DNA of 49,933 nucleotides. It comes from a virus. Below, piece after piece: positions 15,769 to 49,933 of this stretch (the stretch's first letter is position 1; each line of letters begins with the position of its first letter). The stretch lies in the IMG/VR virus record IMGVR_UViG_3300050821_001882, positions 1 to 49,933 of that record; one strand, 5' to 3'. A model generated the notes under the pieces. That model did not search any database. It was given only the letters and a program-made list of their open reading frames with translations, and had not been told where the DNA came from. Made by a program: the position numbers and the translations under genes.

Positions 15769-16302
15769 ATGTCAATCACAAACATCGTCATTAACACGGT
15801 GGATACTGCTGCTATGGTCCTAGACCAATTAGACCCGCAACCCAACGCGGATAGTCCGAATTCGCTCGACCGTCTTGCCCGTTACATCGACGGCTTGGCG
15901 AATAGCGCGTTCTATTACAATACGGTGACGGAAGCCATCGGTGCTATTCAGGCCGTCGCTACCTTTACTGTTACTTCTACTGGTCCGACGAATGGGCAGG
16001 TTGGAACACTTGTCAATCAAAACTTGACAGCTGAAACGAGCGGAGCTAATCCGGCCCTCGGTCAGTTTAATATCAATGCCTCTCCTACCATCGTTGCGGC
16101 TAATATGGCTCTGGCGATCAATAGTACCCCTCTTATTGCTGCGCTTGTTACGGCTACGTCGGCTCTCGGCGTTGTCACTATCACGGCGAAACACGCGGGT
16201 ACTGCCGGGAATGGCTTCGAGATTTCTGCCGGAAATCTTTCAAACGTTGCTGCCGGAGCTTTTGCTGGCGGTGGACCTGGCACTTCAGTTGTGCTATCGT
16301 AA
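15769..16302 (+). CDS. Ala/Thr-rich virion protein (decoration candidate)
   Basis: 177 residues, AAAGGAG upstream. The N-terminal third is helical, followed by a beta domain. The segments VTSALGVVTITAKHAGTAGN and FEISAGNLSNV resemble an immunoglobulin-like module of the sort embedded in phage structural proteins. The position directly after the capsid gene suggests a head decoration or minor capsid role (inference). Confidence 0.65.
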   Translation: MSITNIVINTVDTAAMVLDQLDPQPNADSPNSLDRLARYIDGLANSAFYYNTVTEAIGAIQAVATFTVTSTGPTNGQVGTLVNQNLTAETSGANPALGQFNINASPTIVAANMALAINSTPLIAALVTATSALGVVTITAKHAGTAGNGFEISAGNLSNVAAGAFAGGGPGTSVVLS

Positions 16303-21577: not shown

Positions 21578-22006
21578 GTGATTCTACCCACTTATCGTCG
21601 CCTAACAGACGAAGATTTTCAAGACGCACCTAAAGGAAATTGGAAAAGCAAATTACTCTATGCCATTAATCTATATTTTCAACAGATTTACTATGGATTA
21701 CAGAATCAGCTTACACCAGAACAGAACGATATTTGTCAAGTTAAAACATTCTCTATTATAGGCTCCGCCACACCAGCCAATAATACATATAGTTTTTCTA
21801 CGCTATTTCCTTATCAACCGAGCCGCATGACATTGGGTAAAATTGTGCCGACGGATGGTTCAACCCTTGTTTTTACGGCGGCTCCTTTTATTAGTTGGTC
21901 ATTTGGGAACGGAACATTCAATGTTCTAGGAATTTGCGGCCTAACAGATGGAGTGCCTTATACCATCACAATTGAAGTTCGATGGGCACCTATTATTAAC
22001 GTCTAG
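21578..22006 (+). CDS. Small virion-associated protein
   Basis: 142 residues from a GTG that directly follows the nozzle stop, with GCGGAG upstream. An N-terminal helical part (WKSKLLYAINLYFQQIYYGL) is followed by a beta domain (MTLGKIVPTDGSTLVFTAAP). It probably works with the nozzle protein because of the tight coupling. No family recognised. Confidence 0.65.
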   Translation: MILPTYRRLTDEDFQDAPKGNWKSKLLYAINLYFQQIYYGLQNQLTPEQNDICQVKTFSIIGSATPANNTYSFSTLFPYQPSRMTLGKIVPTDGSTLVFTAAPFISWSFGNGTFNVLGICGLTDGVPYTITIEVRWAPIINV

Positions 22007-22016
22007 GAGAAATAAA

Positions 22017-23999
22017 ATGCCGTTTGTCGAAAACATGGATAATGAAGAGCAGAAGCAAGACCCTAACGCCCCTCAAACTGGCGCAGTATCACCTACGGGT
22101 GGTGGCGGTGGGGCAGTACGTCTATCCCCGGCATCAGCAGTTCCTACAGTCGGCGGTGGTGGAACATCAGGCTCGGGCGGAGCACCAAGCGGCGCACCCC
22201 CGACGGCGGCTGGCGGTTCTTTTGCATCCCTAAATAAATATATCGATGCTAATCAAGGACAAGCTACACCTCTCGCAGGACAACTTACTAATAGCATCGG
22301 CGGTCAATACAATAATCTAGATACCCAGAACAATGCAGCCATTTCTAGTATCAATAATCAAGTAACCAACGCCCCTGGTTATACTGCGAGTGATCCCAAT
22401 GTGCTCGCGCAAGAAGCAGCGAATCCAGTTTCTTTCTCTGGAGATCAGAACAACGTAAAACAATTCCAAAGTCTATTGGACAATTCCTATGGTGGACCGG
22501 TATCGGCCGAAAGTACATCTGACTATGCAAATCAGCAAGGTGCGATAAATAATGCGATCGCCGCAGGGACAGCCGCCACAACCACGGAAGCGGGCAGAGA
22601 AAATCTCCTATCGCAGAATGAAGCGACGCCAACGACTGGTGTTACCGCATTAAATAGTGCTATTCTATCTCAAGATCCAAATGCTCTGTCTTCTGTTGAA
22701 AATGCATATAAACCGTTTGGAAATTTGCTCACCAATCTGAGTACAGGCGCGCAAGGTGTAGATACTACAATCGGAAAAGAGCAGGCGGATGCAACCAGTT
22801 CTTCCCAAGCCGCTAACAAAGCAATCTCAGATCAAATCAATGCGCTGAATACCGGCGTTACTGGTGAACTTACAACCGCGCAACAAAATGCAGCGGCTCA
22901 GAATGCGCAAATAAAATCAGACCTGGCGTCTGGAAATCTTTCTGCTACGGATCTTCAAGCTCTAGGAATGACAGCAGACCAATGGAATTCTTTGTCTGCA
23001 GCTGATAAAGCAGCCGCCACAGGACAGAATGTCACATCATCGGGCCAGGGGCAATTCAGTGCGACAAGTGGAACAACGACTATTGATCCGACTCAATTTC
23101 TAACGCAACAAGATCCAAATTCTGTACTTAATGCTAATAATGTTGCTACTGCCCAAGACTATCAAAAGGCCCAAGCATTTCAAACATTATTGAATGGTTT
23201 GAACCTCGGCACTCCATCCACGCTTATAAATCCGTCTACGGCTTCCCAAGCGGGTACGGCACCAACTAACCTTAATAATTATAACTATCAAACTGCTTTG
23301 AATACAGCGCAAGCTACATCCGCTGAGGAAAAAGCAGCGGCACAAGCTTATGTGGATGCTATCCAATCAGGCGCAGATGAGAACCATGCGCAACTCCAAG
23401 CCCAGAATGCGGCGAAAAATGCGGCGATTAGCACCGGTGCTTCTGCCGTTGCCCTAGGACCGGCGGGATCAGCTGTGACAGGTGGTGCTGTTGGACAGTA
23501 TAATGCTTTAAAGAACATTATCTCCAACCCATCGTTAAAGACCCTGGAGAATGCCCCCGGTACCGTGCTCAAGGGCGTCGAAGGCGGAGTCCAAGATGCG
23601 GTTAATACTATCTCAAATATATTCTGCTTCCATCCTGATACACAGGTGGAAATGGCGGATGGAAGTACAAAGGCTATCCATAAAATAGATGTGGGTGAAG
23701 AAACTAAGGGTGGGAAAGTACTGGCTACGACTCGCGGAGCATCTACCGGTTTCTATTGGTATATGGGTGTTCTCGTAACTGGAAAACACGCGGTTAAAGA
23801 AGATGGAAGATGGGTGAGAGTTGAAAACTCTAAAAATGGTAGATCATTCAAATATCTTACAGAGGTTGTGTGCAATTTGACTACTGATAAGCACAGAATA
23901 TGGGCTAACGGTGTTGAATTCGCCGACGAAAGAGAGACTGATAATTACGAGAATCTTAGTCTTGACGCTTCCTTAGATGCTCTAAATGCAAATGTCTAG
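22017..23999 (+). CDS. Virion protein with C-terminal Hint (intein/hedgehog-type) domain
   Basis: 660 residues from ATG 22017 (AGGAG upstream; an upstream in-frame ATG at 21948 lies inside the previous gene). Residues 1-60 are Gly/Pro-rich, and 60-530 are Ala/Gln/Asn-rich helical sequence typical of ejection proteins. From residue 537 a Hint domain begins: CFHPDTQVEMADGSTKAI, then IDVGEETKGGKVL, VTGKHAVKEDGRW, and LTTDKHRIWANGVEFADE, ending shortly after. Cys537 is in the position of the self-cleaving nucleophile. Phage proteins ending in such a module are known to me; cleavage and its product are inference. It overlaps the GNAT gene. Confidence 0.8.
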   Translation: MPFVENMDNEEQKQDPNAPQTGAVSPTGGGGGAVRLSPASAVPTVGGGGTSGSGGAPSGAPPTAAGGSFASLNKYIDANQGQATPLAGQLTNSIGGQYNNLDTQNNAAISSINNQVTNAPGYTASDPNVLAQEAANPVSFSGDQNNVKQFQSLLDNSYGGPVSAESTSDYANQQGAINNAIAAGTAATTTEAGRENLLSQNEATPTTGVTALNSAILSQDPNALSSVENAYKPFGNLLTNLSTGAQGVDTTIGKEQADATSSSQAANKAISDQINALNTGVTGELTTAQQNAAAQNAQIKSDLASGNLSATDLQALGMTADQWNSLSAADKAAATGQNVTSSGQGQFSATSGTTTIDPTQFLTQQDPNSVLNANNVATAQDYQKAQAFQTLLNGLNLGTPSTLINPSTASQAGTAPTNLNNYNYQTALNTAQATSAEEKAAAQAYVDAIQSGADENHAQLQAQNAAKNAAISTGASAVALGPAGSAVTGGAVGQYNALKNIISNPSLKTLENAPGTVLKGVEGGVQDAVNTISNIFCFHPDTQVEMADGSTKAIHKIDVGEETKGGKVLATTRGASTGFYWYMGVLVTGKHAVKEDGRWVRVENSKNGRSFKYLTEVVCNLTTDKHRIWANGVEFADERETDNYENLSLDASLDALNANV

Positions 24000-24321
24000 T
24001 TCTTTATTTGCCGATTATTGGCGCGAGAAGGGCCATTTAATCGTAGAAACGCAACGCGGATTTATGAGTGCGATTATACATAATAATCTCTGCTATGTGG
24101 ACAATTTCTACGTGAAACCTGAGTATCGAGGGACAGGATCAGCTCTTCAGCTTACATTGCAAACTATCAAACAAGCCAAAGATCGTGGATGTACGGACTT
24201 TTCCGCAGAAGTATACAAATCAGATCCGCTATATGAATACATTGTCAATCTTCATAGACATTTTGGAATGTCCGTGATCGAAGACAACGAATTCAAAACT
24301 GTAACAAGTAAGAGGATATAA
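23986..24321 (+). CDS. GNAT-family acetyltransferase
   Basis: 111 residues, starting in the last bases of the Hint gene; ATG 23986 or 23992 are both possible and no ribosome site is visible, so translation is likely coupled. The acetyl-CoA binding motif is YVKPEYRGTGSALQLTL (strand, then R-G-x-G-x-A turn and helix), followed by a C-terminal strand and YIVNLHRHFGMSVIED. It is short for GNAT but complete in the core. The substrate is unknown; its position among ejection genes is unusual. Confidence 0.75.
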   Translation: MQMSSSLFADYWREKGHLIVETQRGFMSAIIHNNLCYVDNFYVKPEYRGTGSALQLTLQTIKQAKDRGCTDFSAEVYKSDPLYEYIVNLHRHFGMSVIEDNEFKTVTSKRI

Positions 24322-31257: not shown

Positions 31258-31983
31258 TTATCCTCCGATAAGCATCTGTAGAATATCACCCATACTAGGC
31301 GATTTCCAGCGTTTGAGAAACGCGTGAATAGTTTTAGCGGATACGCCGCCGCTGATTCCAGCTTCTACGCCGTTACTTTCTAGTCCCCAATCTGTAAGAG
31401 CCACTACCTCTCCCTTCTCGTTGATCCACGGACCGCCGCTATTACCGCCATGGATCAATCCATCCGTCAGAATATACCCTGCAAACTCCCCACTTACGAT
31501 CCCAAAACTCACGAACCACTTCATCGAGCCCAAAATATTACCGACGATAGTAATGGGTTCGCCATCGTAATGTGCATCTTGAAACGTGGCATAATGAGTC
31601 AGCGGAATCGATCTATCGAGTTCTAAAATGGCTAGATCATCTCCGCGATCCATGAACACGGTTTTACCTTTGGCTACAACGCCAGTAGGATAAGGAAATA
31701 TCCATAGATCATCTTTCGGTCCCTCGGTCATATGGGCGCACGTTAGAATATGCGTTGCATCGATCAGGACACCAGTACCACGACCGACTCCGCCAAAACC
31801 CTCGCGGCTAATCAGCACCGTGAAAGATTTAGTCCTGCTTATAGCCTCACGATTAAGATCATAGCCGTGATAATGCGTAGTAGGAGCTTTGACTCGGGGG
31901 GTCAGTGCCTTTTCGCACACGTATGCCCCAATACCTAAGCCTAGTAATGTAAGAATAGCTACCGTATGAATAAATCGTCTCAT
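31258..31983 (-). CDS. Trypsin-like serine protease, membrane-anchored or exported
   Basis: 241 residues, AGGAG upstream of ATG 31983. A basic start plus a hydrophobic helix (residues 7-22) forms a signal anchor. The catalytic triad of a chymotrypsin/HtrA-type protease is visible: His84 in LTCAHM, Asp116 in GDDLAILELD, Ser182 in GGNSGGPW. The fold follows GTGVLIDATHILTCAHM through ISGGVSAKTI. No PDZ domain is present. The protein would act outside the inner membrane. The target is unknown; phage-encoded exported serine proteases of this kind are uncommon in my experience. It lies near the membrane micropeptides. Confidence 0.88.
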   Translation of the reverse strand: MRRFIHTVAILTLLGLGIGAYVCEKALTPRVKAPTTHYHGYDLNREAISRTKSFTVLISREGFGGVGRGTGVLIDATHILTCAHMTEGPKDDLWIFPYPTGVVAKGKTVFMDRGDDLAILELDRSIPLTHYATFQDAHYDGEPITIVGNILGSMKWFVSFGIVSGEFAGYILTDGLIHGGNSGGPWINEKGEVVALTDWGLESNGVEAGISGGVSAKTIHAFLKRWKSPSMGDILQMLIGG

Positions 31984-41559: not shown

Positions 41560-41729
41560 TTAAGCCCGCATATCTTTACGAGCTGCTCCTGCGCCGCCGC
41601 TTTCACCTTGTTCAGCTGCGCTAAAGACTCAAGCTTGCGGTTGATCTGGCGTGCTAGTTTGCGACTCAGTCGAATGCACGTTCTCAACTGTTGTATTGCT
41701 TGCCGTTTCGCTGACACTGGTTTTTTCAT
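41556..41729 (-). CDS. Basic coiled-coil protein overlapping RNA ligase
   Basis: 57 residues from ATG 41729, with AAGGAGATATTT upstream. Basic helix (QLRTCIRLSRKLARQINRKL). The first 101 bases overlap the C-terminal coding end of the ligase in another frame, where the ligase tail is low complexity. A strong ribosome site supports translation. Nucleic-acid binding is a guess. Confidence 0.6.
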   Translation of the reverse strand: MKKPVSAKRQAIQQLRTCIRLSRKLARQINRKLESLAQLNKVKAAAQEQLVKICGLK

Positions 41730-42651
41730 AAATATCTCCTTCAAATTGTTTTCGCAAGAGCGAGTCTTTATACCATTCTGGTAATCCACGCGTTGACATA
41801 CGAGCGATATGAGGCCACGCGAAAGCGAAAAGTTTTTCCTTAATTTCCTCTTCACACTCACGCTTTATATCAATCGGCACTTCTTTCATCAAGAGCCCGA
41901 TATCCTGTGGCGAATCTGTGACAAGACCTTTCTCGCTGAGGTGCTGCAAAGCTTTCTGCCAACGTGCTTGGGTGCAATATGTCGCCCCGAGCATGGCCAG
42001 GATGTCCCCGGCTGTCGGATTATCGGCCTTCCACATCTTTGAGTGCACCTCTTTGAACGTCTCACTAACAAATTTGCCCATCAGCACTTTCTTATCTACC
42101 CCAAAAAGATTGTAGCCGATGGGTTTAATCACAACGCCTTCTATCTTCTGACCGCCAAGAATGCTTTCTATCCGTAGAAACTCACGGAATGCTTCGATAG
42201 TCTCGACGGTACCGCCATATAGCAGAGGCACTACCTCTAGCCCTAAACGTTTTGCCTCTGCCCACTTGGCCGGATACTCTAAGAATTCGCACTCGCCTAT
42301 CTCGATATCAAATAGGATGATGTGCTCTCTCGGTACACGATTATATATCAGCGCATTGTGCTTTGGCGACCGAAGATATTCGCCGCGATAGGTCCAACCT
42401 GGATGCAAAAGTGGCTTTAGTCTCTTGACCGTCTCGACGGCAAATGTGAACATCTTCTCGGGTGCGTCCACAACCATCTCACAACCTTTGGAGCGCACTT
42501 TTAGCTCGCCCTCTTCGGTAAGGCCGAAAGAGAATTGTGATCCGTCAACCTTCTCTTCCACATAGACCGGCACTTTAAGTAAGTCAGCGATGGCCTTATG
42601 ACCGAGATTGTAGATTGAACTGTAATGATGCCAGCTATTCATGACTGACAT
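41629..42651 (-). CDS. RNA ligase (T4 Rnl2-like)
   Basis: 340 residues from ATG 42651, AAAGGAA upstream; an in-frame ATG nine bases later is also possible. The nucleotidyltransferase motif I is EEKVDGSQFSF with Lys34 as adenylate acceptor. YRGEYL, then ILFDIEIG, EGVVIKP and KFVSETF follow as motifs Ia, III-IV and V. RNA ligases repair broken tRNA or seal nicked RNA. The C-terminal tail (about 40 residues, Thr/Ser/Gln-rich) is encoded where it overlaps the next gene. Confidence 0.9.
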   Translation of the reverse strand: MSVMNSWHHYSSIYNLGHKAIADLLKVPVYVEEKVDGSQFSFGLTEEGELKVRSKGCEMVVDAPEKMFTFAVETVKRLKPLLHPGWTYRGEYLRSPKHNALIYNRVPREHIILFDIEIGECEFLEYPAKWAEAKRLGLEVVPLLYGGTVETIEAFREFLRIESILGGQKIEGVVIKPIGYNLFGVDKKVLMGKFVSETFKEVHSKMWKADNPTAGDILAMLGATYCTQARWQKALQHLSEKGLVTDSPQDIGLLMKEVPIDIKRECEEEIKEKLFAFAWPHIARMSTRGLPEWYKDSLLRKQFEGDIYEKTSVSETASNTTVENVHSTESQTSTPDQPQA

Positions 42652-42785
42652 TCGTGGTTCCTTTCGGCGTTTTCTAAGTCTACGATACAATCCATAAGAC
42701 GTTCGATCTCGTCTAGCGCCACACATAAAGGGCATCCTCGGCCCTCGTAAACGATTTCATCGTGACAATTACCGCACGTATTCAT
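42639..42785 (-). CDS. Zinc-ribbon micro-protein
   Basis: 48 residues. TCGNCHDEIVYEGRGCPLC gives two Cys pairs in tight zinc-ribbon spacing, then an acidic helix (DEIERLMDCIVDLEN). It overlaps the ligase start by 13 bases and the nuclease end by four (ATGA). The ligase ribosome site lies within it. Confidence 0.6.
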   Translation of the reverse strand: MNTCGNCHDEIVYEGRGCPLCVALDEIERLMDCIVDLENAERNHECQS

Positions 42786-49402: not shown

Positions 49403-49933
49403 TTAACCGTTCCAGCGTTCGGCTTCTTGTCTTGTGATGAAGAAATGAATCCCGTGTGAGCATTCGTTTAATGGCGATGGATCATAGCTATCAGGTCTTA
49501 CAGTCTTTCCGACGGTGTATATGAGGTTAGGATCACACAATCCGGTAGTAGTTTTCATCGTCGACCCATCAATTTTAGAATGAATGGCTATGACTTTAGC
49601 ATATTCCGCACGGCATTTTTGTGAGCCGATATAATTTACTCTTGCAGCTTTCGCGGGAATTTGCAAGGTTACTATACTATCTTTGGCGGCCTTATATACG
49701 GTCAAAGTGCCTGATGGAAGTAACGAAGTAAATGATAGAATATAATCAATAGTTTTTTGGTTCGCGCCGCTAAGGTCCGCGCCGCTAAGGTCCGCGCCTC
49801 TAAGGTCCGCGCCTCTAAGGTTCGCGCCGCTAAGGTCCGCGCCTCTAAGGTTCGCGCCGCTAAGGTTCGCGCCGCTAAGGTTCGCGCCGCTAAGGTTCGC
49901 GCCGCTAAGGTTCGCGCCGCTAAGATACGCGCA
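49403..49933 (-). CDS. Pentapeptide-repeat protein, C-terminal part (gene runs off the right end)
   Basis: The frame is open from base 49933 down to the stop at 49403. It starts in pentapeptide repeats, then a linker (residues encoded at about 49705-49757), then a C-terminal domain: [33 protein letters not shown] and [17 protein letters not shown]. This resembles the DUF5758 domain that commonly ends pentapeptide proteins. With the left part (1-389) the gene is about 307 codons; the exact repeat number at the cut is uncertain. Confidence 0.85.
49770..49933 (-). repeat. 15-base tandem repeat, right part of the array
   Basis: Ten complete 15-base units and a last one of 14 bases at the window edge, of the same consensus as at 1-315, plus a partial unit just before 49770. 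It encodes the last pentapeptides of the protein whose C-terminal domain follows. The array is cut by the window edge. Confidence 0.95.

What the first reader, a model, noticed from the sequence alone, without database searches (positions are those of the whole stretch)
23625..23999. Hint domain at the end of a virion/ejection protein
A long Ala/Gln-rich virion-type protein ends in an intein/hedgehog-like module starting at Cys537. It suggests self-cleavage or attachment of the released chain during capsid maturation. A GNAT gene overlaps its last codons, an unusual pair.
Basis: partly seen in the sequence, partly recalled or inferred. Interest (0 to 1): 0.7.

Follow-up and report, generated by a model that had tools for sequence, protein, structure and literature searches.

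The report
Phage Hint domain with GNAT partner
A phage protein ends in a predicted self-cutting (Hint) domain whose gene overlaps a gene for a GNAT-type acyltransferase-fold protein, and the same two-gene pair recurs on unrelated phage proteins, which suggests a reusable device for processing or tagging them that I could not find described.

Summary
The Hint domain is real. Cys537 to the stop (23625-23999) models confidently as a Hint fold (pLDDT 87). Its best PDB matches are the Tetrahymena BIL2 domain, a Vint domain, inteins and Hedgehog. Cys1 and the block-B [S/T]xxH histidine are invariant in 66 distinct relatives. The intein C-terminal His-Asn is replaced by a near-invariant Asp and no C-extein follows, so N-terminal cleavage or transfer is expected, not splicing. 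The GNAT overlap is also real and is not an oddity. Of 102 distinct relatives with enough 3' sequence, 84 are followed directly by a GNAT-fold gene, mostly overlapping by 11 nt. Of 74 relatives of that GNAT, 71 have the Hint directly upstream; the other three have it a little further upstream, behind inserted enzyme genes. The cassette sits on unrelated carriers. Ten relatives of this phage carry the same carrier without Hint, and none has this GNAT. One relative (L013) carries a Hint of the GNAT-less clade and has no GNAT. The GNAT therefore follows the Hint type, not the carrier. Cleavage, virion location and what the GNAT does are inferred, not shown. I found no description of this pairing in the papers searched.

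The parts
22005..22009 (+). Shine-Dalgarno-like AGGAG for the carrier ORF
   Evidence: read from the sequence printed
22017..23624 (+). Carrier part of the protein (536 aa, Ala-rich, no Cys); the N-terminal ~300 aa are conserved in related phages
23625..23999 (+). C-terminal Hint domain (124 aa plus stop), Cys537 onward
23625..23627 (+). Cys537 codon, predicted nucleophile of the N-S acyl shift (invariant)
23778..23789 (+). Block B T588-G-K-H591 ([S/T]xxH; His invariant)
23925..23927 (+). Asp637, near-invariant, at the place of the terminal Asn of inteins
   Evidence: equivalence to the intein Asn is my own alignment by eye
23986..24321 (+). GNAT-family partner gene (111 aa; alternative ATG at 23992); keeps the acyl-CoA loop EYRGTGSA
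23986..23999 (+). Overlap of the Hint and GNAT reading frames; TAAATGCAA junction shared with many relatives

Best explanation
This is a mobile autoprocessing cassette of two co-translated parts: a Hint domain fused to the C-terminus of a phage (probably virion) protein, and a GNAT-fold partner translated from an overlapping start. Shown by sequence and structure prediction: the fold, the conserved Cys1 and block-B His, the missing splicing end, and the Hint-GNAT linkage across carriers. Inferred: Cys537 attacks the Phe536-Cys537 bond and makes a thioester (N-S acyl shift). The carrier is then released from the Hint by water or by an amine, which changes its C-terminus. The GNAT partner takes part, most simply by acylating the carrier, the exposed Hint Cys or the acceptor amine, or by helping the step. 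In this phage the product would be the 536-aa carrier ending in a putative amphipathic helix (...VQDAVNTISNIF).
For: Fold. Catalytic residues: C1, F2, T6, G30, G53 and H55 in 66 of 66 distinct relatives, S or T at position 52 in 63 of 66, D at 101 in 65 of 66. Purifying selection: median dN/dS 0.18 over 247 pairs. The residue before Cys is Gly or Ser in 96 of 107, which suits acyl shift. Linkage: 84 of 102 distinct Hints have the GNAT next door, and 30 of 42 clusters at 85% identity. In the reverse direction 71 of 74, and the other three have the Hint further upstream with enzyme genes in between. Hint and GNAT distances correlate at r = 0.62 against a permutation maximum of 0.17. The GNAT fold of the divergent partner was confirmed: pLDDT 89, top Foldseek hits are GNAT acetyltransferases. 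In this phage's own relatives, GNAT is present in 4 of 5 Hint-bearing carriers with a complete 3' side and in none of 10 Hint-less ones. L013, a carrier ortholog without GNAT, bears a Hint of the GNAT-less clade.
Against: No biochemical data. All members with this pair are metagenomic contigs. The marine partners have lost the RxxGxG/A acyl-CoA loop, so they may not be acetyltransferases at all. Distant relatives of the partner occur beside structural genes without any Hint in Bacteroidetes phages, and T7 gp13, which looks GNAT-like by eye (my reading; profile comparison gave no signal), sits beside internal virion protein gene 14. The GNAT may therefore serve virion proteins rather than the Hint. 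Virion location is not shown for this protein.
Confidence: 0.5

Rival explanations
1. The Hint cleaves itself off by plain hydrolysis, as a maturation step or chaperone-like tail removal. The GNAT is a general virion-assembly or virion-modifying protein of the T7 gp13 kind that only travels in the same operon.
For: GNAT relatives beside structural genes without Hint. T7 gene 13 lies directly before internal virion protein gene 14. Weak match of one partner to PHROG internal virion protein, 0.0035.
Against: Within this family the GNAT follows the Hint type, not the carrier. The linkage holds over carriers with no detectable similarity, with a conserved overlap junction.
Confidence: 0.25
2. The GNAT-fold partner is a dedicated non-enzymatic binding partner of the Hint, such as a folding or timing factor that holds back cleavage until assembly.
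For: Loss of the acyl-CoA loop in the marine partners with strict linkage to the Hint. Overlapping starts favour co-translational assembly.
Against: The window's partner keeps EYRGTGSA and passes the Pfam acetyltransferase cut-off.
Confidence: 0.15
3. The Hint is catalytically idle and serves as a structural or binding module.
For: No activity has been measured, and the model's first residues are low in confidence.
Against: Cys1 and block-B His invariant in 66 distinct sequences, with strong purifying selection.
Confidence: 0.07
4. It is a decayed or split intein caught in a structural gene.
For: Weak profile similarity to PI-SceI.
Against: No terminal Asn, no C-extein, no homing endonuclease, always the last domain, and relatives of the carrier without it simply end earlier.
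Confidence: 0.03

Closest known systems
BIL2 of the Tetrahymena BUBL1 locus (6y75)
   Same: Best structural match. It makes a C-terminal thioester and joins its N-terminal partner to a lysine amine without ATP (PMC8616854).
   Different: BIL2 lies between two ubiquitin-like domains and has a C-terminal Asn (N143). Here the Hint is terminal, has Asp, sits on phage proteins and has a GNAT partner.
B-type bacterial intein-like (BIL) domains
   Same: N-terminal motifs kept, C-terminal intein motif missing, found in non-conserved proteins (PMC7765530).
   Different: Described for bacterial proteins; the review passage read names no GNAT partner. Sequence membership not tested.
Hedgehog Hog domain
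   Same: C-terminal Hint that uses only the first acyl shift (PMC7664689), with Gly before the Cys (the Gly point from my own knowledge).
   Different: No sterol-recognition region follows; only about 20-45 aa remain after the core.
Vint domain (VWA-Vint proteins)
   Same: Among the best fold matches (8r2c), with weak Pfam similarity.
   Different: No VWA or Vwaint part; Pfam score below cut-off.
Achromobacter phage JWF tail-fibre Hint (PJWF_00028)
   Same: Isolated phage with a Hint at the C-terminus of a tail-fibre protein and an overlapping next gene (14 nt) followed by a radical SAM enzyme.
   Different: Different Hint subtype with a longer C-terminal part; the next gene has no Pfam match and is not a GNAT by any test made here.
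T7 gp13 / PHROG 308 and PHROG 17252
   Same: Small GNAT-like protein (gp13 by eye only) beside internal virion or structural genes.
   Different: No Hint beside it.

Membership tests
Hint superfamily (fold) | All-beta Hint fold with N-terminal Cys/Ser and block-B TxxH | tested here: met
Intein | C-terminal His-Asn followed by Cys/Ser/Thr of a C-extein | tested here: not met
   Asp at this place in 65 of 66, no C-extein
Intein | Splicing activity | not testable with these tools
   needs an assay; 124 aa also leaves no room for a homing endonuclease
BIL type A | Conserved His-Asn end | tested here: not met
   definition from PMC7765530
BIL type B | Intein motifs kept except the C-terminal one | tested here: met
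   definition from PMC7765530; sequence kinship to named BIL-B not tested
Hedgehog Hog domain | Sterol-recognition region after the Hint | tested here: not met
   protein ends about 23 aa after Asp637
Vint | VWA-Vwaint-Vint architecture and Pfam Vint cut-off | tested here: not met
   19.7 bits against 27; no VWA hit
Hom_end_hint (PF05203) | Pfam gathering score | tested here: not met
   22.1 bits against 32.1
GNAT acetyltransferase (window partner) | Pfam cut-off and R/QxxGxG/A acyl-CoA loop | tested here: met
   PF00583 29.2 bits against 20.7; EYRGTGSA
GNAT acetyltransferase (marine partners) | GNAT fold | tested here: met
GNAT acetyltransferase (marine partners) | R/QxxGxG/A acyl-CoA loop | tested here: not met
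T7 gp13 family | Sequence kinship | tested here: inconclusive
   hhalign to T7 gp13 E 0.69 and 0.41; one partner hits PHROG 308 at 0.0035

The most novel reading that the evidence does not exclude
The pair is an ATP-independent protein-conjugation device: the Hint turns the carrier's C-terminus into a thioester, and the GNAT-fold partner, a fold built to move acyl groups from thioesters to amines, transfers the carrier onto an amine of another virion part or of the host.
Probability: 0.12. Interest if true: 0.92.

Novelty: new variant of a known kind. Interest (0 to 1): 0.63.

Why it matters
Hint domains are known as self-cutting tails, but a Hint-GNAT pair kept together while moving between unrelated phage proteins points to a shared way of maturing, releasing or attaching them. 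If the GNAT uses the Hint thioester, phages would have a ubiquitin-like tagging reaction needing no ATP, and a new tool for protein ligation. The claim is directly testable with two small genes.

Tried and rejected
The module in known isolates: tblastn of four Hint variants against 50,697 phage records found only N-terminal-motif matches, in a Vibrio phage gene annotated as helicase and in Achromobacter phage JWF. A scan of one genome per bacterial and archaeal species found no relative. PHROGs gave no Hint family for this module. T7 gp13 as a direct homolog was not supported by profile comparison. An idea that relative L016 ends exactly where the Hint would start rests on weak similarity and is only suggestive. 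Synonymous divergence within the window clade is saturated, so dN/dS was taken from closer marine pairs. Literature searches for Hint with phage structural proteins or acetyltransferases gave nothing on this pairing; most subscription papers were not searchable. Intein remnant, BIL-A, Hog and Vint membership rejected on tested features.

Full report
What was claimed.

Observation. All three points hold. The carrier ORF starts best at 22017, behind an AGGAG site, which puts the Hint Cys at residue 537 (23625-23627). The window is a 49,933-base IMG/VR virus contig with P22-type portal and terminase genes. Sequence searches alone are weak: Pfam Hom_end_hint 1.7e-4 and Vint 7.7e-4, both below cut-off. 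With relatives added the case is firm. The model has pLDDT 87.4, and the best PDB matches are Tetrahymena BIL2, Vint, mini-inteins and Hedgehog. A profile of the family also finds PI-SceI and the NEQ068 intein by sequence.

Chemistry kept and lost. In 66 distinct relatives, Cys1 and the His of the block-B [S/T]xxH motif are invariant; the S/T itself is kept in 63. The His-Asn that ends an intein is replaced by a pair ending in Asp, the Asp being present in 65 of 66 (the match to the intein Asn is my own alignment). No C-extein follows; the Hint is always the last domain. This predicts the first intein step (thioester at Cys1) and N-terminal cleavage or transfer, without splicing. The residue before Cys is Gly or Ser in 96 of 107; in the window clade it is Phe, or Lys in L013. 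The domain is under purifying selection (median dN/dS 0.18).

The partner. In the window the GNAT (23986-24321) passes the Pfam cut-off and keeps an acyl-CoA loop. Looking at relatives showed that the pair is the rule. Of 102 distinct Hints with enough 3' sequence, 84 have a GNAT-fold gene directly after, most often overlapping by 11 nt. Starting from the marine GNAT family instead, 71 of 74 have the Hint directly upstream. The other three have the Hint upstream with an aspartyl-hydroxylase-like gene and/or a short-chain dehydrogenase in between. The marine partners were too divergent for Pfam, but their model (pLDDT 89) matches GNAT acetyltransferases throughout the top hits. They lack the R/QxxGxG/A loop, so their donor is uncertain. 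The junction TAAATGCAA occurs at this window's overlap and at many marine ones (the commonest junction, 32 counted), and Hint and GNAT distances correlate (r = 0.62, permutation maximum 0.17). Both fit inheritance as one unit.

Carriers. Clustering gave many carrier groups with no detectable similarity, including DUF4815 structural proteins (L003; L070, L162 and L165 group with it by BLAST), 240-267 aa proteins with glycine-zipper-like ends, tandem-Hint proteins and glycine-rich appendage-like proteins. DUF4815 carriers appear at several places in the Hint tree, so the cassette seems to have moved between carriers, or carriers between cassettes.

A natural experiment in the window's own clade. 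Among 15 related phage contigs, ten have the carrier without a Hint, and none of them has this GNAT anywhere in the contig. Of five Hint-bearing carriers with a complete 3' side (window, L010, L011, L013, L019), four have the GNAT. The exception, L013, bears a Hint from the other, GNAT-less clade. The uncorrected Fisher value for 4 of 5 against 0 of 10 is 0.004, not corrected for shared ancestry. Some contigs are partial, so absence is not proof there.

What it most likely does. The Hint is expected to form a thioester at Cys537 and let go of the carrier; the GNAT acts with it. Which step the GNAT serves is open. The closest structural match, BIL2, joins its N-terminal partner to a lysine without ATP (PMC8616854), and GNATs move acyl groups from thioesters to amines, so a joint transfer reaction is chemically reasonable; nothing here tests it. 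A plain reading is also open: small GNAT-fold proteins occur beside structural genes without Hints in Bacteroidetes phages, and T7 gp13, GNAT-like by eye only, sits beside gp14.

Limits. All members of the pair are metagenomic. Counts are of distinct sequences, not independent events; the 85% clusters (30 of 42 with GNAT) are the fairer figure. The GNAT search profile was built from Hint-linked members, which favours linked finds; its distant relatives are unlinked. Virion location, cleavage and GNAT activity were not shown.

Noticed in passing
1-313 and 49759-49932: Both contig ends are 15-bp tandem repeats that read [10 protein letters not shown] on the minus strand, a pentapeptide-repeat-like protein; the contig probably breaks inside one gene of a circular or permuted genome.
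   Followed up: partly
L078:3978-7127 and L118:863-2965: Hint carrier, aspartyl/asparaginyl hydroxylase, short-chain dehydrogenase and GNAT in one overlapping gene row.
   Followed up: partly
L195 (Achromobacter phage JWF) 3077-6598: Tail-fibre protein with a Cys-rich stretch and C-terminal Hint, then an overlapping 240-aa protein of unknown family and a radical SAM enzyme; a cultured phage in which Hint cleavage could be tested.
   Followed up: partly
L001, L030, L034, L038 and others: Two Hints in tandem: a canonical one ending in HN, followed by the Asp-ending type described here.
   Followed up: partly
15769-16302: A 177-aa ORF resembles PHROG tail sheath (4.5e-8) in a genome that otherwise looks short-tailed.
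   Followed up: no
41629-42735 (-): RNA ligase family protein (Pfam 1.4e-13).
   Followed up: no
31258-31983 (-): ORF that reads like a trypsin-type serine protease (GNSGGP motif) with an N-terminal hydrophobic stretch.
   Followed up: no
window relatives L008-L016: The nearest cultured relative by the 879-aa protein and terminase is a phage of Silvanigrella aquatica, only 24-29% identical; the host of this phage is unknown.
   Followed up: no
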